DNA of 53,230 nt from Rhodospirillales bacterium (GTDB lineage: Bacteria; Pseudomonadota; Alphaproteobacteria; Acetobacterales; Acetobacteraceae): the NCBI GenBank assembly GCA_947447625.1, contig CANFKS010000015.1, forward strand, positions 1 through 53,230, in the 5' to 3' direction. This document shows, piece by piece, positions 24,261 through 42,609 of this stretch (its first letter is position 1; the number at the start of each line of letters is the position of its first letter). Under the pieces are notes generated by a model, which searched no databases, had not been told where the DNA came from, and saw only the letters and a program-made list of their open reading frames with translations. The translations under genes and the position numbers were made by a program.

Positions 24261-24267
24261 CGATACC

Positions 24268-24287: not shown

Positions 24288-24338
24288 AACCCGCGGCTGG
24301 AGAACGGGGTCCGGAGGTCATCCTTCGCTCCCTGCTCC

Positions 24339-24444: not shown

Positions 24445-24455
24445 GGAGAGCGCCA

Positions 24456-26128: not shown

Positions 26129-26225
26129 AGCCTGATAATTTTGGTGGAATCACCAAAAATCATCAGGCGATCAGACAAAGAGTGAGAGCGGGATGCCTGC
26201 GCCGATCAAAAGGCAGCCCGCTCTG
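26127..26225 (+). repeat. Dispersed two-hairpin intergenic repeat, copy D
   Basis: This copy starts in the ychF stop codon. Hairpin 1: CCTGATAATTTTGGTG, loop GAAT, then CACCAAAAATCATCAGG. Spacer CGATCAGACAAAGAGTGAGAGC. Hairpin 2: AGAGCGGG ... CCCGCTCT with inner GCCT/AGGC. It is the best-preserved copy and lies between the converging ychF and the RgpF-like gene. Confidence 0.9.
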
Positions 26226-26256
26226 GTCAAATACAATAACCAACCGGGACGCCAGA

Positions 26257-27312
26257 TCAGGCCACCCGGTTGCGCATCACCCGCCGCAGATCCTGCTCGA
26301 TCGCCTCCGGCACCGCGCCGAACCGCGCGCGCACCTCGTCGCGCCAATCCGAGACATCCGCGACCTCGCTCGGATTGTCCCGCAACAACTCCCGCTTCAC
26401 GAACGGAAACCCGGCCCGGATCAACTGCCGCCACAAATCCGACGTCGGATTGAGCGGCTGGCGCACCGCCACATTATGCCGGATGCGATGCGCATGGATC
26501 CGCCGCATCGCAATCATCGGCTCCTCATTCACCGGGGCATCCCGGTCCGCCTGAATCAGAAACGCCGGATCAACCGTCTCGATCAGGTCGTGATAGCGCC
26601 ACAGCGCCGCGACATCGAACCCACCTCGCACCAGCGCCCGGCTCAACCCCAGCTCATAGCGCAGCACCACCCAGATCTTTGACTTGACCGGCCGAACCCC
26701 GCTCCAGAACCGCCGCCATACCGCACTGTCCAGCACCTTGCGGCCCACCGCCACGAAGTAGGACTGCACATGATAGCAGCCCTGCCAGCTATCGGTGGCC
26801 CCCCATACATCGGCCTTGGCAAAATCCATCCGCCCCAGCGCCGGGCCAAGCGGACCGAGCGGCCCATACAAGCTGTCGTTGACCAACAGCAAACTCTCCG
26901 TATCCGCCCGCGGCAGCCGCAACGTCTCGATCCCGTCGCGCATCGCCCCAAAATCGTACCCGATATTCCGCCGCACAATCACCCCGGCACAAAGCGGCTG
27001 CAGCGCCGCCATCGCCTCGGGCCGCAACAGCCCCGAATTGGTGACAAACACCACGGACAGCCCGGCCTCGCTCAGCGCGCGCACATAACGCACCGTATGC
27101 GCCCCGACCGCCCCCCGCCGGTCGAAATGAATGAACACCGCCACCCGCGGCCCCAACGGAATCTCCCCCGCCGGCCACATCGAAACCACCTGGCGCGGAT
27201 CGCGCAAAAAACTCATCCCGTAGTCGAAATACGACCACACCCGAACACCCGCCGCCCGCATCCGCTTGATCGCAGCGCGCAACATCAGGACGAGCAAGGC
27301 GAATACCCGCAT
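26257..27312 (-). CDS. RgpF-like (rhamnan synthesis protein F family) glycan biosynthesis protein
   Basis: This 351-residue protein resembles RgpF-family proteins of rhamnose-rich polysaccharide synthesis. The recognisable part is the block VIVRRNIGYDFGAMRDGI followed by LLLVNDSLYGPLGPL and TDSWQGCYHVQSYFVAVGRK, all typical of that family. The reaction is not well established; glycosyl transfer is the usual inference. The ATG of MRVFALLVLM is taken as start, about 20 nt after the stop of the upstream glycosyltransferase gene. A longer in-frame opening runs back into that gene. Confidence 0.75.
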   Translation of the reverse strand: MRVFALLVLMLRAAIKRMRAAGVRVWSYFDYGMSFLRDPRQVVSMWPAGEIPLGPRVAVFIHFDRRGAVGAHTVRYVRALSEAGLSVVFVTNSGLLRPEAMAALQPLCAGVIVRRNIGYDFGAMRDGIETLRLPRADTESLLLVNDSLYGPLGPLGPALGRMDFAKADVWGATDSWQGCYHVQSYFVAVGRKVLDSAVWRRFWSGVRPVKSKIWVVLRYELGLSRALVRGGFDVAALWRYHDLIETVDPAFLIQADRDAPVNEEPMIAMRRIHAHRIRHNVAVRQPLNPTSDLWRQLIRAGFPFVKRELLRDNPSEVADVSDWRDEVRARFGAVPEAIEQDLRRVMRNRVA

Positions 27313-27332
27313 GAACGCGACCCCGCTTCGCC

Positions 27333-29081
27333 TCAACCGCCCGAAAGCAGCGGGTCCGCCATCAACGCAAGTTCCGGCACCCGCTCCAACAACTCTTGGT
27401 TCAACGCATCCCGCCGCGCCCACAAGGAGCGATACCACACCGCGCGCTCTTCCACCTGATACGCCAACATGCGATGCCCCGTCACATACTGCCGCGCCGC
27501 ATCCGCCAGGCCGCGCGCATAATCCGGGTTGGCGATCATCCGCGCCAGGCGCTGCTGCAACTCCTGTGCATCGCGGAATATCAACCCGGTCCGCCCATCC
27601 TCGATCACATCGGCATACACCGTCGGGCTCGCCAGCGCCGCCACCCGGAACGACGCCGCCTCGATGAACTTCAGGTCCGACTTGCATCGATTGAACGGCG
27701 TATCCGCCAGCGGCATGAAGCAGATTTCGCTCGTCGCCAACAAATCCTGATACGTTTCATAATCGCACAGCGGCGTGAACGATTTGTGCGGCGTCTCCAG
27801 CGCATCGAACAACCCGCGATCGGCCACGATCCTGAAAAACAACCGCTCCCCCGCCAACGCCGCCACCGCATTGAGGGCGTCCAGATACGCCGGCCATTCC
27901 TCCTCGCGATTGATCCCCGCAAACAGCATCGTCAACCGCCCCGGCACCGCGAAATTCCGTGGCATCTGCACCTGCCGCACAGCATTGGGGAAAATCGCAA
28001 CATTCGGATTCTCCGCCCCCAACACCCCCGCCAAGGGCTGTGTCGTGGTCTGCACCGCATGCACCGCGCGGAAATTATACACATCGTCGCGCTGCAACAC
28101 CGGAATATAGGCCGGATGGTCGTCGAACTCACAAACCACCACATACCCCCTGTCGAGCAACACGCGCAGCAACGCGAGCCCCGGCGCCCCCGCCAGCAAG
28201 GGGCGATGGAAAATAAAGATCCGCGGCCCCTCCGTCGTCGCCTCGCCCGGGTCATACGCCTCGATAATCCGCGTGATCAGCCCCGGATGCGTCGACAGCG
28301 CCGCCATCGGCTCCACCACGCGGACATGACTCACCCCCCCCACCGGCGTCAGCATCGAGGAGACCACCTCCATCCTCTCCGCCGGCTCGCGCATCGCCCG
28401 CCAGACATGCTGCAACGGCAACGACCGCATCGCATACTGCGCCACATCCACCCCCAGCGCCTCCAGCGCCGGGCGCATCGCCCGCACAAACTCCCCGGCC
28501 TCGGGCCGCCCGAACACCCGGGGGATCACGTCACACGGCACCAACCCTGCCGCAAGCAGCGCCCGGCGCGTCGTCTCCACCGTGAACCAGCGCAAATGCG
28601 TCCGATCGAACAGCCCCGCATCCTCGTAGTCGAAAGTCCCGCGCAGCAATCGCTCGACGAAACTCCAATGCTCCACATTGGGCATGCAAATCAGCATCAC
28701 CCCCTGCGGTGCCAGCCGCTGCGCATGCAGCCCCAACAGCCGCCACGGATCGCGCAGATGCTCCAGCGCATCGCCAAAAACAATGCAGTCGAACACCGTA
28801 TCGCCAAACGGAAACGGCTCTGCCTCAACATCCACATGCGCCACGACATCAAGCCGCGCAGCTGCCACAGCGGCCATATCCGCGTCGGATTCAATCCCGT
28901 AAACCCGCGCCGACGGATTGCGCCGCTTGAACTCCGATCCCAGAGCTCCGCCGCCACACCCAACGTCCAGGACGCGGGCCGCGTTAAGCGGAATACGATC
29001 AAGCAGATCCGGATTGGCAATATCGGCATAGACCGTCATGACGATGGGCGGCTCCTTGCGCGCGCATACCGGCGCATTCAT
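27333..29081 (-). CDS. Bifunctional SAM-dependent methyltransferase / glycosyltransferase fusion
   Basis: This 582-residue protein joins two enzymes. Residues about 15-210 form a class I methyltransferase: motif I is VLDVGCGGGALG, motif II IESDAD, and DCIVFGDALEHLRDPW is motif IV. Residues about 275-570 look like a glycosyltransferase of the GT4 type (FEFDDHPAYIP-like block, MLFAGINREEEWPAYLDAL, SDLKFIEAASFRVAALASPT and VIEDGRTGLIF). It probably makes a methylated or capped surface glycan together with the RgpF-like protein downstream. The start could be the first ATG (29081) or the ATG at 29039 (MTVYADIAN); no strong ribosome-binding site decides. Confidence 0.75.
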   Translation of the reverse strand: MNAPVCARKEPPIVMTVYADIANPDLLDRIPLNAARVLDVGCGGGALGSEFKRRNPSARVYGIESDADMAAVAAARLDVVAHVDVEAEPFPFGDTVFDCIVFGDALEHLRDPWRLLGLHAQRLAPQGVMLICMPNVEHWSFVERLLRGTFDYEDAGLFDRTHLRWFTVETTRRALLAAGLVPCDVIPRVFGRPEAGEFVRAMRPALEALGVDVAQYAMRSLPLQHVWRAMREPAERMEVVSSMLTPVGGVSHVRVVEPMAALSTHPGLITRIIEAYDPGEATTEGPRIFIFHRPLLAGAPGLALLRVLLDRGYVVVCEFDDHPAYIPVLQRDDVYNFRAVHAVQTTTQPLAGVLGAENPNVAIFPNAVRQVQMPRNFAVPGRLTMLFAGINREEEWPAYLDALNAVAALAGERLFFRIVADRGLFDALETPHKSFTPLCDYETYQDLLATSEICFMPLADTPFNRCKSDLKFIEAASFRVAALASPTVYADVIEDGRTGLIFRDAQELQQRLARMIANPDYARGLADAARQYVTGHRMLAYQVEERAVWYRSLWARRDALNQELLERVPELALMADPLLSGG

Positions 29082-29137
29082 CGATACTGCCGCGAAACGC
29101 TCGAAAACACCAGGGAGGAAGCTGTAAACACCGTCAA

Positions 29138-29557
29138 TTACCCACCGCAGCGAAGCTGCGCCACCTCATCCAACGCCGCCTGCTCCCGCGCCAGCGCCTT
29201 CTCCCGCTCCGCCGCCGCCTCAGCCGCGATCCGCCGATCCACTGCCTCAGCCGCCGCCCGCGCCACCGCCAACTGCGCCCGCGCCTGCACTGACGCCGCC
29301 TCCGCCCGCCCCAGCACCTCCCGCGCCGCAGCCAGCCGCGCATTCCCCTGCGGCAGCCAGGCGATATAGGCCTCGACCACGCTATCGTCAGCCTCCAGCG
29401 CGCTGGCCCACTCCCGCTCGCGGACCAACATCTCCGCCACCTCGCGTGCCACCGCGCCGCTTCGTCCTTCCGCCTGCAAGCACAGCGCAAGCTTCTGCCG
29501 CGCCTCCTCGACCACCAGGCGGCGCATCCGCGCCATCACATCCAGCGTGCGTGCCAT
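29138..29557 (-). CDS. FliJ-like coiled-coil protein (putative flagellar export chaperone)
   Basis: This 139-residue protein is almost wholly alpha-helical and Ala/Arg/Glu-rich, with heptad-like spacing (REREWASALEADDSV, then EAASVQARAQLAVARAAAEA), as in FliJ. Sequence similarity is not strong, so the call rests on size, composition and position next to ctrA and fliI. The ATG of MARTLDVMARM begins 14 nt after the ctrA stop; a GTG at 29581, overlapping the end of ctrA, is an alternative. If correct, it assists the FliI ATPase in the flagellar export gate. Confidence 0.5.
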   Translation of the reverse strand: MARTLDVMARMRRLVVEEARQKLALCLQAEGRSGAVAREVAEMLVREREWASALEADDSVVEAYIAWLPQGNARLAAAREVLGRAEAASVQARAQLAVARAAAEAVDRRIAAEAAAEREKALAREQAALDEVAQLRCGG

Positions 29558-29570
29558 CGTCCGCAACCGC

Positions 29571-30329
29571 TCATGCCGCACTCAGCACGGCGTCCGGCGC
29601 CGGCGCCCGCTCCCCCGACATCGCCCGCGCCGGCAACGGCGCGAACACCTGGCGCTGCTCCGGCTCGCGCATCATGTAGCCCCGCCCCCACACCGTCCCG
29701 ATCACAGTGCCAGCACCGGCCGCTTTCAACTTCTTGCGCAACTTGCAGATGAACACGTCGATGATCTTCATCTCCGGTTCATCCATCCCGCCATAGAGGT
29801 GATTGAGAAACGCCTCCTTGGTCAGAATCATCCCCTTGCGCAGCGTCAACAACTCCAGGATCGCATATTCCTTGCCCGTCAGCGGCACCGCGGTCCCGTT
29901 CACGAACACCTCGTGGCTGTCCAGATTGAGTTGCAACTCACCCACCCGCAGGCTCGGCTGGCTGAACCCCTTGCTCCGCCGCACCACCGCCTGGATCCGC
30001 GCCACCAGTTCAGCGCGATCATACGGCTTGGTGATGAAATCATCCGCCCCGAGCGCCAACCCCTTCACCTTCGCCTGCGGCCGCGACAGCCCGGACAGGA
30101 TCAGCACCGGCGTCTCCATCCGCGCCGCCCGCATCCGCCGCACCACCTCATACCCTTCCATATCCGGCAGCATGAGATCGAGGATCACGATATCGTAATC
30201 ATAATGCCGCGACAGCTCGAGCGCCTCCTCCCCCACTCCCGCCACATCCACCACCGTCCCGGCGGCCTTCAACAGGAGCGACACACCGCGGGCGGCCTCC
30301 GCATCATCTTCAACCAAAAGAACTCTCAT
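29571..30329 (-). CDS. ctrA: Cell-cycle response regulator CtrA
   Basis: CtrA is an OmpR-family transcription regulator of cell cycle, motility and, in Caulobacter, replication initiation. The 252-residue protein has a receiver domain with the acidic pair VEDD, phospho-Asp in YDIVILDLMLPDMEGYEV and lysine in FITKPYDRAEL, then a winged-helix domain whose sequence is hallmark CtrA (LTGKEYAILELLTLRKG, FLNHLYGGMDEPEMKIIDVF in part, and TVWGRGYMMREP). The ATG follows GAGGAGAAGGTG, a good ribosome-binding site; a GTG directly before it is possible. It is divergent from fliI. Confidence 0.93.
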   Translation of the reverse strand: MRVLLVEDDAEAARGVSLLLKAAGTVVDVAGVGEEALELSRHYDYDIVILDLMLPDMEGYEVVRRMRAARMETPVLILSGLSRPQAKVKGLALGADDFITKPYDRAELVARIQAVVRRSKGFSQPSLRVGELQLNLDSHEVFVNGTAVPLTGKEYAILELLTLRKGMILTKEAFLNHLYGGMDEPEMKIIDVFICKLRKKLKAAGAGTVIGTVWGRGYMMREPEQRQVFAPLPARAMSGERAPAPDAVLSAA

Positions 30330-30473
30330 CACCTTCTCCTCTGCAACCTATGATTGTCTTTTAACAGACAAATTCGCCGTCATCCATCATTTTTTCACTT
30401 CTTAACTCATATTCTGACATTTAAATGCGTTCAAAAACTAAACTCCGCTCAAAAATCAGGTGTTTTCTGTATT
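30330..30473. promoter_or_regulatory. AT-rich divergent control region of ctrA and fliI
   Basis: This is one of the most AT-rich gaps in the window. It holds TTAA half-sites at 30361, 30402 and 30421, two of them followed by C (TTAAC), as in the CtrA half-site TTAACCAT. No exact TTAA-N7-TTAA full site was found. CtrA autoregulation or control of fliI from here is an inference. Confidence 0.4.
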
Positions 30474-31841
30474 ATGAGACATTCCACCTTCGCTGCCCGC
30501 GCCGAGGCCGCAACCGCACGCCTCCAATCCCTCACCGGACTCGATATCCACGGCCATGTCAGCGGCCTCTCCGGGCTCGCCGTTGACCTCGCCGGCCTCG
30601 CCCATCACACCGCCGTCGGTGACCGTATCGCCCTCGCCGCCCGCGACGGCCGCTCCATCACGGCTGAAATCGTTGGTTTCGCTGGACAAACCGCCCGCGC
30701 CATGGCCTTCGGCACCGCCGAGGGCATCGGCCCCGGTGCCATCGCCACCGCCCGCCTCAACCGTCATGGTGCAACCCTACCCGTCGATACAACCTGGATC
30801 GGCCGCGTCATCGACCCGCTCGGCCGCCCGCTCGACCGCAAGGGCCCCCTCCCCAAGGGCCCAACCCCCCGCCCGCTCCGCGCCCCCCCGCCCGAGGCCA
30901 CCAGCCGCGCCCGCCTCGGCCCCCGCATCGACCTTGGCGTCCGCGCCCTCAACGCCTTCGCCACCTGTCGCGCCGGCCAGCGCCTCGGCCTTTTCGCCGG
31001 CTCCGGCGTGGGCAAATCCACTCTCCTGTCCATGCTTGCCCGCCGCACCGACTGTGACGTCGTCGTCCTCGCCCTCGTTGGCGAGCGCGGCCGCGAAGTG
31101 CGCGAGTTCCTTGAGGATGACCTCGGCGCCGAAGGCCTCGCCCGCGCCGTCGTCATCGTTGCCACCTCCGATTCTCCCCCCCTGATGCGCCGCGAAGCCG
31201 CCTATGCCGCTCTCACCGTCGCGGAACATTTTCGCGACCTCGGCCAGCGCGTTCTTCTTCTTATGGACAGCGTCACCCGTTACTGCCTCGCGCTGCGCGA
31301 AATCGGCCTCGCCGCCGGCGAACCGCCCGCCACCCGCGGCTATCCGCCCAGCGTCTTCGCCGACCTGCCCCGCCTCCTCGAACGCGCCGGCCCCGGCCCC
31401 GACGGCACGCCAGGCAGCATCACCGCGTTCTTCACCGTCCTCGTCGAGGGCGACGACCACAACGAACCCATTGCCGACGCCGTCCGCGGCATCCTCGACG
31501 GCCACGTCGTGCTTGATCGCCGCATCGCGGAGGCCGGCCGCTACCCCGCCATCGATATCCTGCGCTCCCTCTCCCGCGCCGTGCCCGGCTGCAACACCCA
31601 GGCCGAAAACGCCCTCTCCCGCCGCGCCCGCGCGCTCCTCGCGCTGTACTCCGATGTTGCCGACATCGTCCGCCTCGGCGCCCATCGCCCCGGCGCCGAC
31701 CCCGCCGTGGATGAAGCCATTCGCCTTGCGCCGCGCATCGAAGCCCTCCTCCGCCAATCCCGCGACGAAGCCACCGGCATCGAACCCACGTTCGCAGCCC
31801 TTGCGGAAATTCTCGGACCGGCCGAAACCACCGCCTCGTGA
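30474..31841 (+). CDS. fliI: Flagellum-specific ATP synthase FliI (export ATPase)
   Basis: FliI is the ATPase of the flagellar type III export apparatus. The 455-residue protein has the export-ATPase opening, the region around WIGRVIDPLGRPLD, Walker A LFAGSGVGKSTLLSML, the conserved LVGERGREVREFLE, Walker B RVLLLMDSVTRYC, and ATRGYPPSVFADLPRLLERAG. The ATG of MRHSTFAARAE is chosen by family alignment; the leader before it is AT-rich and has no good ribosome-binding site, only AGGTG at long spacing. No other flagellar structural genes follow. Confidence 0.93.
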   Translation: MRHSTFAARAEAATARLQSLTGLDIHGHVSGLSGLAVDLAGLAHHTAVGDRIALAARDGRSITAEIVGFAGQTARAMAFGTAEGIGPGAIATARLNRHGATLPVDTTWIGRVIDPLGRPLDRKGPLPKGPTPRPLRAPPPEATSRARLGPRIDLGVRALNAFATCRAGQRLGLFAGSGVGKSTLLSMLARRTDCDVVVLALVGERGREVREFLEDDLGAEGLARAVVIVATSDSPPLMRREAAYAALTVAEHFRDLGQRVLLLMDSVTRYCLALREIGLAAGEPPATRGYPPSVFADLPRLLERAGPGPDGTPGSITAFFTVLVEGDDHNEPIADAVRGILDGHVVLDRRIAEAGRYPAIDILRSLSRAVPGCNTQAENALSRRARALLALYSDVADIVRLGAHRPGADPAVDEAIRLAPRIEALLRQSRDEATGIEPTFAALAEILGPAETTAS

Positions 31842-31858
31842 ACCACAAGGAGGCCCCA

Positions 31859-32431
31859 ATGCCCCAGCCCGGCCATATCTCCGTCCTCGGCGTCCCCGAC
31901 CCCGCCACGCTTGACGATGACCTCAAGACGATCTGGGCGAAGTGCGTCGAAAAACTGGGCTTCGTGCCAAACGTCTTCTCGACCTACAGCCTCAAGCCGC
32001 AGCGCCTGCGCAATTTCATGGCGATGTACAACGAAATCATGCTCTCCAAATCCGGCCTCTCGAAGCTGGAACGCGAGATGATCGCCGTCGTCGTCTCATC
32101 GGCCAATCGGTGCTATTATTGTCTGGTGGCCCACGGCGCCGCCGTTCGCCAACTCTCAGGCGATGCCGAACTCGGGGAAATGATGGCGCTGAACTACCGC
32201 GTGGCCAAACTCGACCCGCGCCAGCGCGCCCTGCTCGACTTTGCCTGGAAAATGACCACCACCCCGCACCTCATCGACGACACCGACCGTGAAGGCCTGC
32301 GCGGCCACGGCCTCTCGAATGACGACCTGTTCGACCTCGCCGAAACCACCGCCTTCTTCAATCTCTCAAACCGCATGGCCTCTGCCAGCGATATGATGCC
32401 CAACAAGGAATACCATCCCGCCTTCCGCTGA
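31859..32431 (+). CDS. AhpD/carboxymuconolactone decarboxylase-family peroxidase-related protein
   Basis: This 190-residue protein has the AhpD-like core: ERE...SSANRCYYCLVAHGAAV, with the CxxC pair and following histidine used in alkylhydroperoxidase chemistry. It matches the peroxidase-related subfamily in its N-terminal FVPNVFSTYSLKPQRL and C-terminal FNLSNRMASASDMMPN. The start ATG has a strong AAGGAGG. It sits 17 nt after fliI and may be co-transcribed, although no functional link with flagella is obvious. It is the last C-rich gene before the strand-composition switch. Confidence 0.85.
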   Translation: MPQPGHISVLGVPDPATLDDDLKTIWAKCVEKLGFVPNVFSTYSLKPQRLRNFMAMYNEIMLSKSGLSKLEREMIAVVVSSANRCYYCLVAHGAAVRQLSGDAELGEMMALNYRVAKLDPRQRALLDFAWKMTTTPHLIDDTDREGLRGHGLSNDDLFDLAETTAFFNLSNRMASASDMMPNKEYHPAFR

Positions 32432-32546
32432 AAAGTGATCGGCGAGAACGGAAGCTCGTCCGCATTCCTGCGCGCGCCGCAATGCGCCGGGCGGATTGCG
32501 CTTCGCCGCGGGGGGGTTACGATCGCGCCGGCAAAGGGGAACCGTT
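32432..32546. other. Point of GC-skew inversion between left and right halves of the window
   Basis: Left of here the top strand is C-rich whichever strand codes; right of here it is G-rich whichever strand codes. Hand counts per 60 bases: 16561-16620 (plus gene) C30 G15; 22621-22680 (minus gene) C22 G16; 32341-32400 C23 G10; then 32881-32940 C12 G28; 34201-34260 (plus gene) C9 G30; 37441-37500 (minus gene) C9 G29. The 115-bp gap itself shows no DnaA box cluster and no AT-rich unwinding segment. Confidence 0.8.
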
Positions 32547-33152
32547 ATGGCATTGCATGTGGACTACTACGCATCGTTGAACTCGCCCTGGGCGCATTTC
32601 GGCGCTGCCCGGATCGAGGCGATGACGGCGGCGCATGGCGCGTCGCTGCGGATCATCCCGGTTGATTTCGGCGCGATCTTTGCCAAATCGGGCGGCCTGC
32701 CGCTGCCCCAGCGCTCGCCGCAGCGCCAGGCCTATCGGATGATGGAACTGGCGCGGTGGCGGGAGAGTCTGGGCATCCCGATCCACCTCAAGCCGGCGTT
32801 TTTCCCCCATAACGAGGTGCTCGGCGCCTGCTGCGCGATCGCGTTGCGCGAGACGATGGGGGATGGGCCGGCGATCAGGTTGGCGCATCGGGTGTTGAAG
32901 GCGGTGTGGGAGGATGAGGTGAATCCGGCCGATCCCGCGGTGCTGGCGGGGTTGATTGCCGAGATCGGGCTTGATGCCGATGCGGTGATGGCGCTGGGCG
33001 CACAGCCGCGATGGGCGGAGATGCGGATGGCGGACAGCCAGGCGGCGTTGGACCGGGGGGTGTTCGGGGCGCCGAGCTATGTGATCGGCGAGGAGGTTTT
33101 CTGGGGGCAGGACCGGCTCGCGTTTGTGCAAGCGCGGCTCGCGCGGGGGTAG
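32547..33152 (+). CDS. DsbA-family / 2-hydroxychromene-2-carboxylate isomerase-like thioredoxin-fold protein
   Basis: This 201-residue protein has the DsbA/kappa-class glutathione transferase layout. It opens HVDYYASLNSPWAHFGAARI, where the active-site position is a serine (NSPW) rather than a CxxC, as in HCCA isomerases and kappa GSTs, and closes with the cis-proline loop RGVFGAPSYVIGEEVFWGQDR. It therefore probably handles a glutathione conjugate rather than disulfides; the substrate is unknown. The ATG of MALHVDYY follows AAAGGGGA. It is the first gene with G-rich codons. Confidence 0.85.
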   Translation: MALHVDYYASLNSPWAHFGAARIEAMTAAHGASLRIIPVDFGAIFAKSGGLPLPQRSPQRQAYRMMELARWRESLGIPIHLKPAFFPHNEVLGACCAIALRETMGDGPAIRLAHRVLKAVWEDEVNPADPAVLAGLIAEIGLDADAVMALGAQPRWAEMRMADSQAALDRGVFGAPSYVIGEEVFWGQDRLAFVQARLARG

Positions 33153-33218
33153 ACGGGTCCGCCCTGGCGTTGCACCCTTCCCCTCCGCCCCAGAGGGGAT
33201 AAGGAAGGGATGATTGCC

Positions 33219-35000
33219 ATGCCGCATGTACCGGATGCCTGGACCAAGATCAGCGCCGCGACCACCGCTGTGTTTTCGCGCGATGGGGGGACGATCTACC
33301 ATTTGCGCGGGGTGGGGTTGCCGCAGGTGTGGGCGATGGACCGGGATGGGGGGAATGCGCGGCAGTTGAGTTTCCATAGCGAGAAGGTTGCGTTTTTGCG
33401 GCGCTCGCCGACGGATGAGCGGTTGATCTGGGGGATCGATGCGGGCGGGGACGAGTTGCAGCAGTTCCAGATGCTGGAACCGGGCAAGGCGCTCCGGGCG
33501 CTGACGGCGAATCCGGAGGCGATTCATGATTTCGGCGCGTGGTCGGCCGATGGGGCGCGGGTGGCATATGCGACGAATGATCGCGATGCGCGGTTTCATG
33601 ACATCTGCGTGCTCGATATCGAATCGGGCGGGCGGATCCGGGTTTATGAGGGGACCGGGATTTTGTCGGTCAGCGCCTGGAAGTCGGACGGCGCGGTGCT
33701 GGTGATGATGGAGGATTATTCGTCGATCGATCAGCGGATCTGGTTGCTTGATCCGCGGACCGGGGCGGCGCGGATGGTGGCGCGGCCTTCGCCCACCCGG
33801 TATTCCGGGGTGCGGTTTGTGGCGGATGGGGGGTTGATGGGGATTACCGATCACGGCGGCGCGGAATTCATGCGGTTGTGCCGGATCGATGCGCAGAGCG
33901 GGGCGGTGACGGAGGTGTTTGCGCCGCAGGGGCGCGACGTCGAGGGGTTTGCGATTTCGCCGGATGGGGCGTGGTTGGCGACGATCGAAAATGATCGGGG
34001 CTATGCGGTTTTGCGGGTGGGGCCGCTCGGCGGTGAGCGGCCGGCGGTTTCGGGGGTTCCGGTCGGGATTGTGAGCGAGTTGGCCTGGGCGCCGGATTCG
34101 GCGAGCCTGGCGTTTACGGCGCAGGGGCCGACGGCGCCGCCGGGGTTGTTTGTGTGGCAGGGCGGGGTTGTGACGGCGTTGGCGGTGCCGGATCCGTTGG
34201 CGGGGTCGGGGATTGCGGGGCCGGATCTGGTTGGGTTCGATCTGGTGGGTTGGACGAGTTTCGATGGGCTGGCGATTCCGGGGTGGTATGCGCGGCCCAA
34301 GGGGCCGCAGCCGGCGGCGGGGTATCCGGCGGTGGTGTGGGTGCATGGCGGGCCGGCTTCGCAGACGCGGGCCAATTTCCGGGCGGATATGCAGTTGCTG
34401 CTGGACCAGGGGTTTGCGGTGTTGATGCCGAATATGCGGGGCTCGACCGGGTATGGCCGGGCGTATCTGGAGGCCGATGAGGTCGAGAAGCGGCCGGATA
34501 TGATGAAGGATCTTGCGGCGGGGCGGACCTGGCTTGCGGCCCAGCCGGGCATCGATCCGGCGCGGATCGGGATCATGGGGCAGTCCTATGGCGGGTGGGT
34601 GGTGCTTGCGGCGGTGACGATGCAGCCGGATTTGTGGAAGGCGGCGGTGAACTACTACGGGATTGCCGATTTCGTGACGCTGCTGGAGCGGACGGGGAAA
34701 TGGCGGCGGGATCATCGGGCGCGGGAATATGGGTTTCCGGAGACGGATGGCGCGTTGTTTCAGGAGATTTCCCCGATCCATGGGGTGGGCAATGTGGTGG
34801 CGCCGCTGTTGGTGCTGCATGGCGACCGGGATCCGCGGGTGCCGATGCATGAGAGCGACCAGTTTGTCGCGGCGATGGAGGAGCGGCAGAAGAAGGTGCG
34901 CTACGAGAAGTTCGACTATGCCGGGCACGGGTTCATCCGGCCGGAGCATCGCACGCGGGTGTATCATGCGGTGGCGGAGCATTTCCGGGATTGGCTGTGA
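33219..35000 (+). CDS. S9 family (prolyl oligopeptidase/acylaminoacyl-peptidase-like) serine peptidase
   Basis: This 593-residue enzyme has an N-terminal beta-propeller with TolB/WD-like repeats (ISPDGAWLATIENDRG, WAPDSASLAFTAQG) and a C-terminal alpha/beta hydrolase domain. The nucleophile serine is in GIMGQSYGGWVV (near residue 456), the aspartate in VLHGDRDPRVPM and the histidine in DYAGHGFIRPEH. No signal peptide is seen, so a cytoplasmic peptidase is likely. The start MPHVPDAW (33219) has AAGGAAGGG at proper spacing; an ATG 9 nt earlier is too close to it. Confidence 0.9.
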   Translation: MPHVPDAWTKISAATTAVFSRDGGTIYHLRGVGLPQVWAMDRDGGNARQLSFHSEKVAFLRRSPTDERLIWGIDAGGDELQQFQMLEPGKALRALTANPEAIHDFGAWSADGARVAYATNDRDARFHDICVLDIESGGRIRVYEGTGILSVSAWKSDGAVLVMMEDYSSIDQRIWLLDPRTGAARMVARPSPTRYSGVRFVADGGLMGITDHGGAEFMRLCRIDAQSGAVTEVFAPQGRDVEGFAISPDGAWLATIENDRGYAVLRVGPLGGERPAVSGVPVGIVSELAWAPDSASLAFTAQGPTAPPGLFVWQGGVVTALAVPDPLAGSGIAGPDLVGFDLVGWTSFDGLAIPGWYARPKGPQPAAGYPAVVWVHGGPASQTRANFRADMQLLLDQGFAVLMPNMRGSTGYGRAYLEADEVEKRPDMMKDLAAGRTWLAAQPGIDPARIGIMGQSYGGWVVLAAVTMQPDLWKAAVNYYGIADFVTLLERTGKWRRDHRAREYGFPETDGALFQEISPIHGVGNVVAPLLVLHGDRDPRVPMHESDQFVAAMEERQKKVRYEKFDYAGHGFIRPEHRTRVYHAVAEHFRDWL

Positions 35001-35712
35001 TGCTGGATTGATATGATATCGTAACGAATTGGGCCTGATTCGGCGCTGCCGGGTCAGGCTTGATTTTTTGGCGGCTTGATTTTTGTGGGCCAGAATTTTG
35101 TGGGCCAGATTTTCGCCTGGCAAATGCGGAGGACGATTTTCGGGCGGGGTTTGGCGCGAGGGCCGGCGGCGTGGAGTCCGGAGGGGCCGGTTTTGGGGGA
35201 GGCGGAGGTTCGGGCTGAGCGCCGGGCTGGGTGGGGAAGATGACGCCGAGCATGCGGCAGACGCGCCTGAGGAGGCGGGCGGCCTGGGGGCTGGCGGCGA
35301 GGAGTTCGGCGTGGTGCGGCAGATCGAACTGAAGTTGCAACTGGCAGGCGATGGCGGCGGCTTCATTGGGCAGGGCGCGAATGAGCCAGAGTTCGCCGCG
35401 CGGGCGCAGGGGGGGGAAGCGTGGGATTGGGTTGGGTGTGCGGTCGCGGGCCTGGGGCGTGCGGGTTGTATCAGGGTGGAACGGGGCGCGGGGGCGGGGC
35501 GGCGTGCCGGCGGCGAGGCGGGCCATGAGGCGTTCGAAGCGGCGCCAGGTGCGGGTGAGATAGCCGCCGAGGGCGTTGGCGTGCGGGGCCATGGCGGGCA
35601 CGCGGAAGCGGGCGGCGACGAGGGTGCGCAGCCCGGCCAGGATCTGCGCCACGACCACCGCCAAGGCGGGGGCGAGCGCGCGCAGTTCGGGTGCGGGTGC
35701 GGCCAGGTTCAT
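34933..35712 (-). CDS. Hypothetical protein, Pro/Ala-rich with a conserved-looking helical core
   Basis: No function is recognised. The 259-residue frame begins MNLAAPAPELRALAPALAVV, preceded by TAGGACT as a ribosome-binding site. It contains helices with RRFERLMARLAAG and a compact block RGELWLIRALPNEAAAIACQ plus AASPQAARLLRRVCRMLGV that looks selected rather than accidental. From residue 170 on it is low-complexity (PPPPPKPAPP, then Lys/Ser-rich). The last 68 nt overlap the S9 peptidase gene on the opposite strand. The N-terminal two-thirds is probably a real gene; the tail is less certain. Confidence 0.55.
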   Translation of the reverse strand: MNLAAPAPELRALAPALAVVVAQILAGLRTLVAARFRVPAMAPHANALGGYLTRTWRRFERLMARLAAGTPPRPRAPFHPDTTRTPQARDRTPNPIPRFPPLRPRGELWLIRALPNEAAAIACQLQLQFDLPHHAELLAASPQAARLLRRVCRMLGVIFPTQPGAQPEPPPPPKPAPPDSTPPALAPNPARKSSSAFARRKSGPQNSGPQKSSRQKIKPDPAAPNQAQFVTISYQSSITANPGNAPPPHDTPACDAPAG

Positions 35713-35846
35713 GGATTGTAGTCCTACCCCGGCTTGGGTAGCGCCGCAAGGAAAATGTTAGTTTGTTGGTTATTTTTTCTTAGAGGCTTGGGTCTGGCCG
35801 GCGTTTTCGGCCGTCAGGCGCGGGCCCCGGTTGGCCGGCGTTGAAC

Positions 35847-36305
35847 TCATTCCTTGTATTTGACGTCGATGGCCAGCAATTTCCAGTGGCCCTTGTTCTG
35901 AACGAAGCTGAGCTTGTAGCGAACCCGCTTCTCATCGTCCTTGAAGGCGCCGACGAGGCTCAAAATGCCGCTCTTATCGATGGTGGCGTCTTCGTAAGAG
36001 GCGATTTCATCGGCCACGATGCTTTCGATGTTGACGGCGAGGTCGCGGAATTTCTTGAAGGCCTTGGCAATGTCGTCAAGCGTGAGTTGGTCCTGGAATT
36101 CGCGCGAGGCCTTGGCGCGCAGCACGGCATAATTGCCGGTCAGATTGGCGTCGTTGAATGTCATCAGGGTGGTGCGGATCAGGATTTCCTGTTCGTTGTC
36201 CGAGGGGATTTTGGCGCTCCAGGCCGGCGTGGCCGTGATGAGGCAGAGCAGGGCCAGCAGGAAGACTCGTCCGATCCAAGCCGGGGCGTTGAGGCGGGGC
36301 ATCAT
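35847..36305 (-). CDS. Small exported protein of unknown function
   Basis: The 152-residue protein has a signal peptide (hydrophobic WIGRVFLLALLCLITATPAW, cleavage near WSA-K). The mature part, with RTTLMTFNDANLTGNYAVLR, QDQLTLDDIAKAFKKFRD and KLSFVQNKGHWKLLAIDVKY, resembles NTF2-like or DUF4864-type small folds, where a helix pair is followed by a curved sheet ending in a WKL strand. Binding to a small ligand in the periplasm is only a guess. It uses a less GC-rich codon set than its neighbours. Confidence 0.7.
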   Translation of the reverse strand: MMPRLNAPAWIGRVFLLALLCLITATPAWSAKIPSDNEQEILIRTTLMTFNDANLTGNYAVLRAKASREFQDQLTLDDIAKAFKKFRDLAVNIESIVADEIASYEDATIDKSGILSLVGAFKDDEKRVRYKLSFVQNKGHWKLLAIDVKYKE

Positions 36306-36428
36306 GGTGTGTTCCTGTCGAGACGATGCGCCCCCCTCCATCTGCCGAAACCGGATGACGCCGAAACCGGATGATGGAGGGGGATGACTTGTTTTCTGCC
36401 CTGCCGGGCGTGGGATCAGACCCGTGGA

Positions 36429-36794
36429 TTACTCGCCGACGGCGCGGGACTGCTGGGTTTTGGCGTCCCAAAACAACGTGATGGTCGAGAACTTGCAGAG
36501 ATCGACATCCATCCATGCGGCTGTGCTGCCGTCATCATGGTATTTCACCTTGATGTCGAAGCGGCAGGCGCCGTTGCCGTGCGGGAAGACGATGTTGACG
36601 GCTTCGCCATCGGCGAGCGCATCACGGCCCATGATGTCACTGCCCCATGAATCGCTGGAGTGGGCGCCGACATAGACCGAGTCGATCTGATAGCCGGTTT
36701 TGTTTTGCAGTTTGAAGTCAGCATCATTGGCATGGGCGGCGGCGGCGAAGGACAGGCTCAACAATGCCGCCAGCGCGAATTTCACGAAACGCAT
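36429..36794 (-). CDS. Small exported protein of unknown function (conserved domain type)
   Basis: The 121-residue protein starts with a clear Sec signal (MRFVKFALAALLSLSFAAAA, cleavage after HAN). The mature domain has the pattern DFKLQNKTGYQIDSVYVGAH, then SWGSDIMGRD, VFPHGNGACRFDIKVKY and DVDLCKFSTITLFWD, with two cysteines that could form a disulfide. Proteins of this pattern occur in several proteobacteria without known function. It is the middle gene of three small exported proteins on the same strand. Confidence 0.7.
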   Translation of the reverse strand: MRFVKFALAALLSLSFAAAAHANDADFKLQNKTGYQIDSVYVGAHSSDSWGSDIMGRDALADGEAVNIVFPHGNGACRFDIKVKYHDDGSTAAWMDVDLCKFSTITLFWDAKTQQSRAVGE

Positions 36795-36863
36795 GGGTTC
36801 ATCTCTTTCGTTTGACCGTGTGTCCTGAAGGCGGGATGCCGTCCAGGTTTAGCCGTACGCGTT

Positions 36864-37115
36864 TCAGCCGCCCATCACCTTGATTGCGGCATCCATAGCC
36901 TTCTCCGTGGGATGGGATTTGCAGTAATCGCTCATTTTTTTATCGATCTCGGCGGCGGCCGCATCGACTGTCGAATCGCCCGTCTTTGGCGTTGGCCCGA
37001 TTTTGGCGGCCAGTTCCAGATAAGCACTGCATGTCATGTTCGGATCCGAAACCTGTGCTGTCGAAACCGTCGAAAATGACACTATAGCGACAAACAGAGC
37101 TGCGAGTTTTTTCAC
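36864..37115 (-). CDS. HdeA/HdeB-family-like periplasmic protein
   Basis: The 83-residue protein has a signal peptide (MKKLAALFVAIVSFSTVSTA) and a short mature helical domain. Its two cysteines stand in MTCSAYLELAA and MSDYCKSHPTEKAMDAAI, the spacing and context of HdeA/HdeB, whose single disulfide links two helices. In enterobacteria these proteins are acid-activated chaperones. The family call is made from this pattern only. GC is clearly lower here (31 of 60 at 36901-36960 and 24 of 60 at 37081-37140). Confidence 0.55.
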   Translation of the reverse strand: MKKLAALFVAIVSFSTVSTAQVSDPNMTCSAYLELAAKIGPTPKTGDSTVDAAAAEIDKKMSDYCKSHPTEKAMDAAIKVMGG

Positions 37116-37220
37116 GTTTTTCGGCCTATGTATTGTAATGTTACGCGGCGGTTGGCATCTTTCGATTTATAGGCGAGCCTTTTGGACGTGACAAGCAACG
37201 GAAACGATAGGGCGGACGCC

Positions 37221-37249
37221 GATCACCCGCTGCTGGGGAGCAGGTGATC
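37221..37249. terminator. Hairpin between aminotransferase and exported-protein genes
   Basis: GATCACC at 37221 pairs with GGTGATC ending at 37249, with an extra GCT/AGC pairing inside after one mismatch. There is no T-run. The left part of the first 53-bp repeat unit overlaps its right arm. Confidence 0.45.
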
Positions 37250-37397
37250 GGGCGATTCAGACCTCCGGCGTGCCGCCTGCGGTCATCGCGCGCACGTTGA
37301 TCGGGCGATTCAGACCTCCGGCGTGCCGCCTGCGGTCATCGCGCGCACGTTGATCGGGCGATTCAGACCTCCGGCGTGCCGCCTGCGGTCATCGCGC
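37246..37397. repeat. Tandem repeat of 53 bp, nearly three copies
   Basis: Units start GATCGGGCGATTCAGACCTC at 37246, 37299 and 37352. The first two are identical; the third is 46 bp and ends exactly where the stop codon of the aminotransferase (37398) begins. The unit therefore lies in the 3' untranslated region of that gene. There are no spacers, so it is not a CRISPR array. Confidence 0.95.
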
Positions 37398-38681
37398 TCA
37401 GTGTGTGATGTCGTGGACCATTTCGTCCCAGGCGGCGAGGAAGGCGTCGGCATCGTGTTGCTGGAAGACGAGGGGGGGGCGGATTTTGACGGTGTTGCGG
37501 AAGATGCCGGCGTTCGACGTCAGGAAGCCTTTGTCTTTGAGGCGGTTGATGACGTCGATGGCGCAGTCGGGGTCGGGGGTTTTGTGGCCGTCGTCCTTGA
37601 TGAGTTCGACGCCGATGAAGAGGCCGGTGCCGCGGACGTCGCCGATGGCGGACCAGGCGGGGGCGCGGGATTGGAGGCCGGATTTGAGGTTGGCGCCGAT
37701 GGTGGCGACGGAATGGAGGAGGTTTTGGTCCTCGATGTAGTTGATGACGGCGAGGCCGACGGCGGCCTGGAGGGGGGAAGAGGCGAAGGTGTTGAAGTAG
37801 CGCGTTTTGGCGCGGAAGGTTTCGACCAGTTCGCGGCTGGCGGCGGTGGCGGCGAGGGGCAGGCCGTTGCCCATGGGCTTGCCGGTGACGACGATGTCGG
37901 GCTTGAGGCCGGAGACATCGTAGCCCCACCATTGGCCGGTGCGGGCGTAGCCGGCCTGGACTTCGTCGGAGATGACGAGGCCGCCGGCGGCGTGCACCAT
38001 GGCGGAGGCTTTTTCCATGAAGCCGGCGGGGATGTTGGGGAGGCCTTCATTGGCGAGGATGGAGCAGGCGATGAAGGCGGCGAAGCCGTGGCCGGCGCGG
38101 TTGTGCGCGTCAATCGCGGCGGCGAGGCGGGCGAGATAGGCCTCGCAGAGTTCGGCCTCGGAGGCGCCTTCGAGGAGGGGGCGGTAGGTTTCGGGGAAGG
38201 GGATGGCGCGGACTTCGGATGTGCTGTCCTGGTTGAGGGAGAGGCGGGTGAGTTTGGAGACGAGTTCGGAATTGCCGTGATAGGTGCCGTCGGAGCAGAT
38301 GATGCCTTGTTTGCCGGTGGCGAAGCGGGCCATGCGCAGCGCGACCTCGATGGCTTCGGTGCCGGAGCAGGAGACGATGACGCTTTCGATTTTGGCGGTT
38401 TTGTGCAGGCCGGTAAGGCGTTCGCAGAAGGCGACGATGTCTTCGTGCAGGTAGCGCGAGTGAACGTTGAGGGTGGATTGGGCCTTCGTCATGGCGGCGA
38501 CGACGGCGGCGTTGGCGTGACCGACGCAGGGGACGTTGTTGTACATGTCGGTGTAGCGGCGGCCCTGGGGGTCAAACAGATAGGCGCCGTCGCCGCGGAC
38601 GAGGTGAAGCGGATGGGCGTAGAAGAGGGGGGTGCCGGCGCCGAGGGCAGCATTGCGGCGGGCGAGGAGTGTCTGGGGCAT
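37398..38681 (-). CDS. Class III pyridoxal-phosphate aminotransferase
   Basis: This 427-residue enzyme transfers an amino group using PLP. It has the cofactor aspartate in LVISDEVQAGYARTGQ (Asp239), the lysine in VVTGKPMGNGLPLA (Lys268), and the early glycine motif SCSGTEAIEVALRMAR. It fits class III omega-transaminases such as alanine-glyoxylate aminotransferase 2 types; the substrate is not determined. The start ATG of MPQTLLARR has a GGAGAG ribosome-binding site. It is divergent from the gamma-glutamyltransferase-like gene (124 bp between starts). Confidence 0.9.
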   Translation of the reverse strand: MPQTLLARRNAALGAGTPLFYAHPLHLVRGDGAYLFDPQGRRYTDMYNNVPCVGHANAAVVAAMTKAQSTLNVHSRYLHEDIVAFCERLTGLHKTAKIESVIVSCSGTEAIEVALRMARFATGKQGIICSDGTYHGNSELVSKLTRLSLNQDSTSEVRAIPFPETYRPLLEGASEAELCEAYLARLAAAIDAHNRAGHGFAAFIACSILANEGLPNIPAGFMEKASAMVHAAGGLVISDEVQAGYARTGQWWGYDVSGLKPDIVVTGKPMGNGLPLAATAASRELVETFRAKTRYFNTFASSPLQAAVGLAVINYIEDQNLLHSVATIGANLKSGLQSRAPAWSAIGDVRGTGLFIGVELIKDDGHKTPDPDCAIDVINRLKDKGFLTSNAGIFRNTVKIRPPLVFQQHDADAFLAAWDEMVHDITH

Positions 38682-38805
38682 GCGCGTCTCTCCGGGGGCG
38701 GTTGACGGGATCATGGCGCGGGTTTGAGAGGTTGGGAATGGGGGGTGGCGTGACAGGGGGGGCTGGGGAGGGATAGGGTTGGTTCAGAAACTCCGGGAGG
38801 CCGCC

Positions 38806-40398
38806 ATGACATTCGTACAGCGCAATCATCGTCCGTTGATCATGGGCCGCCGGGGGGCTGTGGGGTCGAACCATCCGATGGCGACGCAGGCGGGGTTGGA
38901 TGTGTTGCGGGCGGGGGGGAATGCGGCGGATGCGGCGGTGGCGGTGTCGCTGGCGCTCGGGGTTTGCGAGCCGATGATGTCGGGGCTGGGGGGGGATGGG
39001 TTCTATCATCTGCATGATGCGAAGACGGGGACCTCGGTGGTCTATAACGGGACCGGGGCGGCGCCGGGGGCGGCGACCGCGGAGCGGTTCAAGGACGGGG
39101 TGGCGGTGACGGGGGCGTTGTCGGCGTCGGTTCCGGGGAGTTTGGCGGGGCTGGCGGCGATGCATGCGGCGCATGGGGAACTGCCGTTCGGCGTGCTGGT
39201 GCGCCCGGCGATCGCGTTGGCGCATGGCGGGTTTGCGGTGACGCACAAGCATGTCTCGACGACCGAGGATAATCGGGCGCGGCTGGCGGCGGATGCGCGC
39301 AGTGCGGCGTCGTTCCTGGGGCAGAAACTCGGGGATGTGTGTGTGCAGGGCGATCTGGGGCGGACGCTGGAGGCGATTGCGGCCGACGGGCCGGAGATTT
39401 TCTATCGCGGGCCGCTGGCGCAGCGGATCGCGGCGGGCGTGATGGCGGCGGGGGGGATGATCACGGCGGGGGATTTGTCGTCCTGTGCGGCCGAGGTGCA
39501 GGCACCGATCGGGATTTCGTATCGGGGATGGACGATCACGCAGACGGGGCCGAATTCGACCGGGTTCACGATGTTGCAAATGCTGAAGATCGCCGAGCGG
39601 TTCGATATCGCGGGGATGAGCGCGGCAGAGCGGGTGCATGTGCTGGTGGAGGCGAAGAAGCTGGCGTTTTTGGATCGGGAGCGGTGGGGCGCGGATCCGC
39701 GGTATGAGACGGTGCCGTTGGAGCGGCTGTTGTCGGATGCGTATGCCGATGACTTGGCGGGGCGGATCGACATGGCGCGCGCGGCGGTGATGGCGACGCC
39801 GGTGTCGGCTGCGGGGGATACGACGTATTTCTGTGTGGTGGATGGCGAGGGGAATGCGGTGTCGGCCATTCAAAGCCTGAACGGGGCCTATGGGTCCGGC
39901 GTGACGGCGGGGGATACCGGGATCGTGATGAACAACCGGATGGCGTATTGGCATGTGGCGGAGGGGCATGCCAATCGGCTGGTGCCGGGCAAGCGGGTGC
40001 GGCACACCATGAATGCGCCGATGGTGTTGAAGGATGGCAAGCTGGTGGCGGTGTTGGGGACGCCGGGGGCGGATCATCAGGTGCAGGTGAATTTGCAGGT
40101 GGTGACGGCGATGCTGGATCTGGGGCTTGATCCGCAGTCGGCGTTGGAGTCGCCGCGCTGGACGTCGAGCCAGGTGGGCCAGGGGGCGAATTGGCCGCAT
40201 GAGGGGGATGGGGCGTTGTCGATCGAGGAGGATCATGGCGCGGCGGTGTTGGCTGATCTCGCGGGGCGCGGGCATCAGATCAAGCGGCTGGGACATCTGG
40301 AGGGGCCGTGCGCGATGCAGGCGATCCGGGTGTTGGAGAACGGGGTGCGGATGGCGGGCTCGGACCCGCGGCGGGACGGGTGGGCGGGCGCTTTTTAG
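38806..40398 (+). CDS. Gamma-glutamyltransferase-like Ntn hydrolase (no signal peptide)
   Basis: This 530-residue protein follows the gamma-glutamyltransferase fold: ATQAGLDVLRAGGNAADAAV, MMSGLGGDGFYHLHD, and the self-processing threonine in GDTTYFCVVDGEGNAVSA (near residue 339), which becomes the nucleophile of the small subunit. Classic GGT is periplasmic, yet no signal peptide precedes MTFVQRNHRP, so a cytoplasmic relative (for example oxamate amidohydrolase or acylase-type) is likely. A GGGAGG ribosome-binding site supports the start. Confidence 0.85.
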   Translation: MTFVQRNHRPLIMGRRGAVGSNHPMATQAGLDVLRAGGNAADAAVAVSLALGVCEPMMSGLGGDGFYHLHDAKTGTSVVYNGTGAAPGAATAERFKDGVAVTGALSASVPGSLAGLAAMHAAHGELPFGVLVRPAIALAHGGFAVTHKHVSTTEDNRARLAADARSAASFLGQKLGDVCVQGDLGRTLEAIAADGPEIFYRGPLAQRIAAGVMAAGGMITAGDLSSCAAEVQAPIGISYRGWTITQTGPNSTGFTMLQMLKIAERFDIAGMSAAERVHVLVEAKKLAFLDRERWGADPRYETVPLERLLSDAYADDLAGRIDMARAAVMATPVSAAGDTTYFCVVDGEGNAVSAIQSLNGAYGSGVTAGDTGIVMNNRMAYWHVAEGHANRLVPGKRVRHTMNAPMVLKDGKLVAVLGTPGADHQVQVNLQVVTAMLDLGLDPQSALESPRWTSSQVGQGANWPHEGDGALSIEEDHGAAVLADLAGRGHQIKRLGHLEGPCAMQAIRVLENGVRMAGSDPRRDGWAGAF

Positions 40399-40508
40399 GG
40401 CGCGGTGTTTAGGGGCGGTTAGGGAATCGGGGTCATGATGTGGTTCTGACGGTGTGAAAGAGTTCCCGCAGCAGTCCAACGCCAGAAAGGCCAGAGCGGA
40501 ATGAGATC

Positions 40509-40733: not shown

Positions 40734-40753
40734 GGGTTGCGTCGCTGCGGGTC

Positions 40754-42608: not shown

Positions 42609-42609
42609 G

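What the first reader, a model, noticed from the sequence alone, without database searches (positions are those of the whole stretch)
32432..32546. Sharp strand-composition (GC-skew) inversion near 32.5 kb
The top strand is C-rich through the AhpD-like gene (C23 G10 at 32341-32400) and G-rich from the next gene (C12 G28 at 32881-32940). The bias holds for genes on both strands (minus-strand gene at 22621: C22 G16; minus-strand gene at 37441: C9 G29), so it is not a coding-strand effect. A negative-to-positive skew switch is the pattern expected at a replication origin if the leading strand is G-rich. It could also be the edge of an inversion, an integrated replicon or an assembly join. Neither a DnaA-box cluster nor an AT-rich unwinding stretch was seen in the gap, which weakens the simple oriC reading.
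Basis: partly seen in the sequence, partly recalled or inferred. Interest (0 to 1): 0.75.

Follow-up and report, generated by a model that had tools for sequence, protein, structure and literature searches.

The report
Bacterial chromosome with many origin-like points
The strand-composition flip at 32.5 kb is real, but it is only one of many such flips spaced tens of kilobases apart in this relative of acetic acid bacteria, a pattern that looks as if DNA copying began at many places instead of the single start usual in bacteria.

Summary
The skew switch is real and sharp: cumulative GC-skew minimum at 32426, step fit 32430 (interval 32390-32480), on genes of both strands. It is not the single oriC. 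In 1.118 Mb sampled from 17 contigs of this 4.28-Mb draft there are 17 up and 8 down steps above 0.2. Up steps are mostly sharp, down steps mostly gradual (median fitted width 1 kb of 13 against 15 kb of 11): a sawtooth like that of multi-origin genomes. No DnaA-box cluster, shared motif or recognised replication gene marks the steps. Collinear blocks in same-genus genomes can carry different skew, so the steps reflect mutation by place and they move. In one block, changes private to this genome begin at its step and hit cytosines of one strand: C>G 199 against G>C 12. The window's step is kept in one relative, G004, with 3.2 kb of extra DNA exactly in the gap. Best reading: one of several tens of recurrent fork-divergence (origin-like) points; what starts the forks is unknown. 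Against it: 4 of 11 down steps are sharp, one sampled contig is flat, gene co-orientation is weak. No read-depth data existed.

The parts
32390..32480 (.). GC-skew switch point (origin-like polarity point)
   Evidence: step fit on third codon positions and intergenic bases; cumulative minimum 32426
32432..32546 (.). 115-bp gap between the AhpD-family and DsbA-family genes that holds most of the switch interval; in G004 3.2 kb of extra DNA lies exactly here
3001..32431 (.). left arm: C-rich top strand, third-position skew sloping from about -0.20 to -0.59 towards the switch (fit made on 1-32400)
32547..53230 (.). right arm: G-rich top strand, third-position skew sloping from about +0.64 to +0.33 away from the switch (a step fits this arm slightly better than a line)
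31838..32431 (+). AhpD-type gene (carboxymuconolactone decarboxylase family), last gene of the left arm
   Evidence: PF02627
32547..33152 (+). DsbA-family thioredoxin-fold gene, first gene of the right arm
   Evidence: PF01323
33210..35000 (+). prolyl-oligopeptidase-family (S9) gene in the right arm
   Evidence: PF00326
30480..31841 (+). flagellar/type III-type ATPase gene (FliI-like; the name is my inference)
   Evidence: PF00006 and PF18269
29571..30332 (-). response regulator gene (CtrA-like by its conserved sequence, named by eye)
   Evidence: PF00072 and PF00486

Best explanation
Position 32.43 kb is one of several tens of recurrent bidirectional fork-divergence points (places from which replication forks usually leave in both directions) in this chromosome. 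A strand-specific process removes cytosines on the strand exposed by outward forks (lagging-strand template, or nascent leading strand in break-induced synthesis): mainly C>G at four-fold sites, C>T where C>G would change the protein. G and T therefore build up on the strand that leads outward. Between neighbouring points forks meet at varying places, so skew falls and changes sign over many kilobases. Shown: the switches, their sharpness, the sloping arms, the strand-specific loss of C that begins at one switch. Inferred: that replication forks cause it and that the points are starts. Unknown: the initiator; no DnaA-box cluster or common motif was found and points differ between species, so recombination- or R-loop-dependent starts are as open as protein-defined origins.
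For: 17 up against 8 down steps above 0.2 in 1.118 Mb, 8 against 1 above 0.35. Up transitions narrower than down: 2.4 kb (16) against 9.9 kb (13), p=0.0013 at threshold 0.10 and p<0.006 at three other thresholds; ramp fits 1 kb (13) against 15 kb (11), p=0.024. All 14 arms that I chose between steps slope down. Third-position skew of 869 genes follows the skew of their flanks on both strands, rho 0.75 and 0.83, AT skew opposite, rho -0.55. Two switches lie inside open reading frames. Collinear blocks in G001-G004 differ in skew from this genome. Polarised changes in the C1 block right of the switch: C>G 199, G>C 12, C>T 94, G>A 10; left: 18, 18, 21, 4, beginning at the switch; at four-fold sites 146 of 239 conserved C became G, 84 of 93 G stayed. 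The window's two border genes show the same signs: AhpD G>C 17, C>G 4; DsbA C>G 25, G>C 9. Switch kept in G004. Sampled contigs of four relatives (609,179 bases) had 0 up crossings at threshold 0.10.
Against: 4 of 11 fitted down transitions are 2 kb or narrower and 5 of 13 up transitions are 5 kb or wider. A step has the better AIC than a line in 9 of 14 arms, a line in 4, a constant in 1, so a linear decline is not established. Contig C16 is flat over 40 kb, though of atypical composition. Genes are only weakly co-oriented with the G-rich strand: 265 of 490, p=0.08. No motif, no DnaA-box cluster and no replication gene marks the points. Points are not at the same place in G004 or G002 for the C12, C27 and C1 steps. 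The polarised spectrum rests on one 4.4-kb block plus two genes. No closed genome and no read depth.
Confidence: 0.6

Rival explanations
1. Scrambled single-origin chromosome: 32.43 kb is the edge of an inversion or translocation that joined segments from opposite replichores.
For: Gene order in the genus is heavily broken: a 20-kb query matched on many contigs in each of 4 relatives, mostly in pieces of 0.6-4 kb. AhpD and DsbA lie on different contigs in G001, G002 and G003. 9 of 13 well-placed up steps touch an intergenic base, expected 2.3. Sharp down steps exist, and one (C1 about 71.7 kb) lies near a break of synteny with G004.
Against: Inversions should give sharp up and down steps alike and flat arms; observed up steps are mostly sharper, and arms slope. 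Two up steps lie inside reading frames. Gene pairs across the C1, C12 and C27 steps keep order and relative orientation in relatives while the skew differs. Skew of moved blocks fits the new place, e.g. C10:43.6-47.4 kb against G004.
Confidence: 0.15
2. A non-replicative strand-polar process, such as recombination tracts or resection from recurrent breaks, or biased mismatch repair, sets the skew.
For: Points are sharp, motif-less, near gene borders and move between species; the change is mainly C>G at four-fold sites, which biased repair of C:C against G:G mismatches could favour.
Against: 5'-to-3' resection with cytosine damage predicts the opposite sign (reasoning). C>T also exceeds G>A, 94 to 10, which the mismatch idea does not give. 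Opposite signs meet smoothly between points.
Confidence: 0.14
3. The gap is the chromosome's one oriC.
For: Sign of the switch; AT-rich intergenic stretch 2 kb away between the CtrA-like and FliI-like genes.
Against: Other steps are as large (C27 0.59, C12 0.46, here 0.49). No DnaA-box cluster in the window. hemE is 5.8 kb from the C27 step and dnaA is on C12; if there is an ordinary oriC, C27 is the better candidate (hemE beside oriC is a recalled trait of alphaproteobacteria), although no box cluster was seen there either.
Confidence: 0.03
4. The genome is made of many plasmid-like replicons, each with one origin.
For: One up step per roughly 66 kb (1,118,052 bases, 17 steps).
Against: C1 holds three and C2 and C10 two up steps each on one contig; no plasmid replication gene was recognised by eye among 51 translations next to the steps; the whole genome was not searched for plasmid initiators.
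Confidence: 0.05

Closest known systems
DnaA-independent multi-site replication in Synechocystis 6803, Nostoc 7120 and dnaA-lacking cyanobacteria (PMC7198777, abstract and passages seen)
   Same: More than one start on a bacterial chromosome; no dependence on a DnaA-oriC there, no box cluster found here; skew not V-shaped.
   Different: There skew is irregular and depth is flat, which suggests no fixed points; here the points are sharp and held long enough to build very strong skew. dnaA is present here and its role is untested.
Skew N-domains / multi-origin replication of human and yeast chromosomes (listing of PMC4729899 and others; the shape itself recalled)
   Same: Sharp upward jumps with slow declines through zero between them.
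   Different: Bacterial host; spacing of tens of kb; chiefly C>G change; no fork-direction data.
Multi-origin skew suggested for Wigglesworthia, Wolbachia, Mycoplasma pulmonis (PMC3269012, passages) and putative double oriCs (PMC4403523, part 1 of 2)
   Same: Several polarity changes in a bacterial genome read as several origins.
   Different: Those cases are AT-rich genomes with shallow changes, or pairs of DnaA-box oriCs; here GC-rich, tens of strong changes, no boxes, tested against collinear relatives.
Break-induced / recombination-dependent replication (PMC9262586, abstract start in a listing only; otherwise recalled)
   Same: Could give outward forks without a motif and cytosine-directed mutation of exposed single strands.
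   Different: Known as a repair route, not as a standing chromosome-wide landscape.

Membership tests
Classical bacterial oriC | Negative-to-positive GC-skew switch | tested here: met
Classical bacterial oriC | Cluster of DnaA boxes at the switch | tested here: not met
   no box with at most 1 mismatch in the gap; no 3 in 500 bp in the 1.118-Mb sample; 6 exact boxes genome-wide on six contigs, control 6. Degenerate boxes would be missed.
Classical bacterial oriC | AT-rich unwinding stretch in the gap | tested here: not met
   lowest-GC windows lie at about 30.3, 37.0 and 44.7 kb
Classical bacterial oriC | dnaA, hemE, parAB or the like next to it | tested here: not met
   hemE on C27, dnaA on C12; Pfam on 10 window proteins gave none; parAB were not searched in the genome
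Classical bacterial oriC | Unique on the chromosome | tested here: not met
   17 up steps in 1.118 Mb
Multi-origin (N-domain) skew landscape | Repeated sharp upward jumps | tested here: met
Multi-origin (N-domain) skew landscape | Gradual declines between jumps | tested here: inconclusive
   down transitions wider as a group and 14 of 14 arms slope down, but 4 of 11 are sharp and a step fits 9 of 14 arms better than a line
Multi-origin (N-domain) skew landscape | Replication starts at the jumps in growing cells | not testable with these tools
   no reads or cultures
Inversion or translocation junction | Abrupt change with flat arms and equally sharp up and down steps | tested here: not met
   with the exceptions named above
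DnaA-independent multi-site replication (cyanobacterial type) | Chromosome replicates without DnaA | not testable with these tools
   dnaA is present; dispensability unknown

The most novel reading that the evidence does not exclude
A free-living alphaproteobacterium copies its chromosome in yeast-like fashion from several tens of discrete, motif-less start points spaced tens of kilobases apart, without a DnaA-box oriC; the points move between species of one genus, and a strand-specific C>G mutator tied to the forks records their positions in the genome.
Probability: 0.4. Interest if true: 0.95.

Novelty: new variant of a known kind. Interest (0 to 1): 0.8.

Why it matters
Bacteria are held to begin chromosome copying at one place, some cyanobacteria being the documented exception (PMC7198777, abstract and passages). 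A proteobacterial lineage with many start points written into its sequence would make the question of whether and how bacteria live with many origins directly testable, and its C>G strand bias would point to an unusual replication-linked mutation process. It also warns that a skew switch in a draft contig is not enough to call an oriC.

Tried and rejected
Single oriC at the gap: rejected. Coding-strand effect: rejected. Chance: 0 of 10000 block permutations. Shared exact 6- to 10-mers at the 13 best-placed up steps: not above random sets (300 sets for expectation, 60 for the maximum); gapped or degenerate motifs were not tried. Low-GC element near steps: median lowest 60-bp GC 0.45 at 17 steps, 0.48 at 300 random places, no clear difference. 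Loss of RNase HI as a cause of R-loop starts: an RNase H family gene is present. Conservation of the switch outside the genus: of 29 loci (of 80 returned) whose skew was printed, none shows a comparable switch at the end of the AhpD gene. Paper searches: 'GC skew'+'sawtooth'+'bacteria' 0 papers; 'Acetobacteraceae'+'GC skew'+'origin of replication' 2, neither about this by its listing; others. In these searches I saw no report of such a pattern in this family; subscription papers and preprints are mostly not held. Passages of a Caulobacter polymerase paper (PMC7198004) named no C>G mutator.

Full report
Observation. The window is the whole 53,230-bp contig C15 of a 4,276,057-bp, 197-contig draft (96.36% complete, 0.35% contamination). 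GC skew changes from about -0.25/-0.32 to about +0.3 near 32.4 kb, with the cumulative minimum at 32426 and a step-fit interval of 32390-32480. Genes on both strands near the switch carry the bias at third codon positions; at four-fold sites C reaches 0.82 on the left and G 0.85 on the right. None of 10000 permutations of 1-kb blocks matched the cumulative range.

Surroundings. A CtrA-like response regulator and a FliI-like ATPase lie left of the gap, then an AhpD-type gene; a DsbA-family gene and an S9-family peptidase lie right (Pfam; the names CtrA and FliI are mine). The gap holds no DnaA-box-like 9-mer with at most one mismatch, no tRNA and no Rfam match; one arm of a 10-nt inverted repeat that may be chance lies in it. 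hemE and dnaA are on contigs C27 and C12. The exact DnaA box occurs 6 times in the genome, on six contigs, as often as the reversed control.

The switch is not unique. They hold 17 up steps and 8 down steps larger than 0.2; above 0.35, 8 and 1. C1 holds three up steps, C2 and C10 two each, C12 two that are only 7.7 kb apart. Simple scaling would give about 65 for the genome, but the sample is the largest contigs plus C27 and C149, and of two contigs sampled later C16 is flat over 40 kb while C17 has one rise. C16 has the most deviant composition of 18 contigs compared and a polyketide-synthase-like gene seen by eye. 'Several tens' is the safe statement. The largest step, C27 (0.59), lies 5.8 kb from hemE, so it could be an ordinary oriC; no DnaA-box cluster was seen there.

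Shape. Up transitions are mostly sharp, down transitions mostly slow: smoothed widths 2.4 kb (16 up) and 9.9 kb (13 down), p=0.0013 at threshold 0.10, p<0.006 at thresholds 0.12, 0.15 and 0.18; ramp fits 1 kb (13) and 15 kb (11), p=0.024. Against this, 4 of 11 fitted down transitions are 2 kb or narrower, 5 of 13 up transitions are 5 kb or wider, and a step has the better AIC than a line in 9 of 14 arms. All 14 arms that I chose between steps slope down, the window's two included (-0.20 to -0.59; +0.64 to +0.33). The skew is thus strongest at the switch and weakens away from it, which an inversion edge does not predict.

It is mutation that depends on place. Third-position skew of 869 genes follows the skew of their flanks on both strands (rho 0.75 and 0.83), with AT skew opposite (rho -0.55). 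Genes are only weakly co-oriented with the G-rich strand (265 of 490, p=0.08). Two up steps lie inside reading frames that look like ordinary enzymes or transporters by eye (C1:16.1 kb, C5:59.7 kb). In G001-G004 gene order is heavily broken, yet where blocks are collinear the skew can differ. The C1 block (2.8-21.9 kb) is negative throughout in G004 but turns positive at 16.1 kb here; the C27 gene pair shows no switch in G004 or G002, and in G001 a rise about 1 kb outside the same gene; the C12 pair shows none in G004 or G002. Over 40 orthologous pieces, skews of this genome and G004 still correlate (rho 0.65), and identity falls as skew difference grows (rho -0.43).

Direction of change. In the C1 block, changes private to this genome right of the switch are C>G 199, G>C 12, C>T 94, G>A 10, against 18, 18, 21 and 4 on the left, rising at the switch. 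G004, whose skew is negative there, shows the reverse: G>C 78, C>G 11. At four-fold sites right of the switch 146 of 239 C shared by three relatives became G (8 T, 8 A), while 84 of 93 G stayed; the changed share was 0.54-0.77 for all neighbouring bases, so there is no strong context. This rests on one 4.4-kb block; the window's own border genes agree in sign on smaller numbers: AhpD G>C 17 and C>G 4, DsbA C>G 25 and G>C 9. Unpolarised counts against G004 also show C/G exchange as the commonest difference where the skew is opposite (770 and 506).

The window's switch in relatives. In G004, orthologues of the left arm (16.3-18.2 and 29.3-32.4 kb) have -0.16 and -0.15, those of the right arm +0.18 to +0.36 in six pieces on four contigs, read in the window's orientation. 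On contig C83 of G004 3.2 kb of extra DNA sits exactly in the gap, with near-zero skew. In G001, G002 and G003 the AhpD and DsbA genes lie on different contigs. Outside the genus, none of 29 loci printed shows a comparable switch at the AhpD gene.

Spread. Up steps or sawtooth-like runs appear in G004 (C129, and a slow decline over C1), G005 and G010; G011 has one down change. Sampled contigs of G007 (Limobrevibacterium), G013 and G015 show none and Acidisphaera L21 (G016) one slow change over 379 kb: 0 up crossings in 609,179 bases at threshold 0.10, against 16 in 1.118 Mb here. The closest hits of the AhpD protein are mostly metagenome genomes labelled Acetobacteraceae, Rhodospirillales or Asaia.

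Mechanism. Right of the switch the top strand loses C and gains G and T. For a fork moving right the top strand is the lagging-strand template (or, in break-induced synthesis, the nascent leading strand), so outward forks give the observed sign on both sides; 5' resection from a break with cytosine damage would give the opposite (reasoning from established polarity rules). A fork-divergence point is therefore favoured. What starts the forks is unknown: no shared exact motif in 13 steps, no replication gene seen by eye among 51 translations beside the steps or by Pfam among 10 window proteins. 9 of 13 steps touch an intergenic base, expected 2.3, perhaps inflated because the fit uses all bases between genes but only thirds within them. 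T>G was 0 among private changes on the right, so C>G by way of T is not supported there. The lesion (deaminated or abasic cytosine, or damaged guanine on the other strand) cannot be told.

Known systems. Multi-site, DnaA-independent replication is documented in some cyanobacteria (PMC7198777, abstract and passages). Multi-origin skew was suggested for a few AT-rich bacteria (PMC3269012, passages) and double oriCs for others (PMC4403523, part 1 of 2), with the stated caution that rearrangements can mimic it. The present case differs in number, strength and regularity, and the comparison with collinear relatives addresses that caution. I file it as a new variant of a known kind; it is not filed as a classical oriC because defining features were tested and not met.

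Noticed in passing
37245-37397: Perfect tandem array, 53-bp unit, 2.9 copies, just downstream of the aminotransferase-family gene.
   Followed up: no
20275-20492, minus strand: Cobalamin riboswitch, the only Rfam match in the window.
   Followed up: no
30333-30490: AT-rich stretch (down to 35% GC over 150 bp) between the CtrA-like and FliI-like genes; the cumulative AT-skew maximum (30322) lies at its edge.
   Followed up: partly
48153-48786: Two short ORFs whose third-position skew is negative inside the positive arm; perhaps a recent insertion.
   Followed up: no
L138:3194-6365 (G004:C83): Extra 3.2 kb at the window's switch in G004, with a repeat-rich, PEP-CTERM-like protein by eye and T-rich hairpins near both ends.
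   Followed up: partly
G000 C1 about 71.7 and 108.3 kb, C6 about 15.6 kb, C10 about 39.6 kb: Sharp down steps; the first lies near a break of synteny with G004, so these may be recent rearrangement joints.
   Followed up: partly
G000 C6:32928-33027 and C2:113283-113382: Related intergenic palindromic sequences near two up steps, by eye; not seen at the window's switch.
   Followed up: no
L247-L248 (G000:C16:1-40000): Flat skew, lowest GC and most deviant composition of the contigs compared, polyketide-synthase-like gene by eye; probably acquired or a different region.
   Followed up: partly
G001-G004 against window 29000-48999: Very strong gene-order scrambling within one genus at 70-90% DNA identity.
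   Followed up: partly
L145 (G002:C323): DsbA orthologue with AT-rich third positions (G39 C55 A53 T54), unlike its relatives; foreign or mis-binned contig possible.
   Followed up: no
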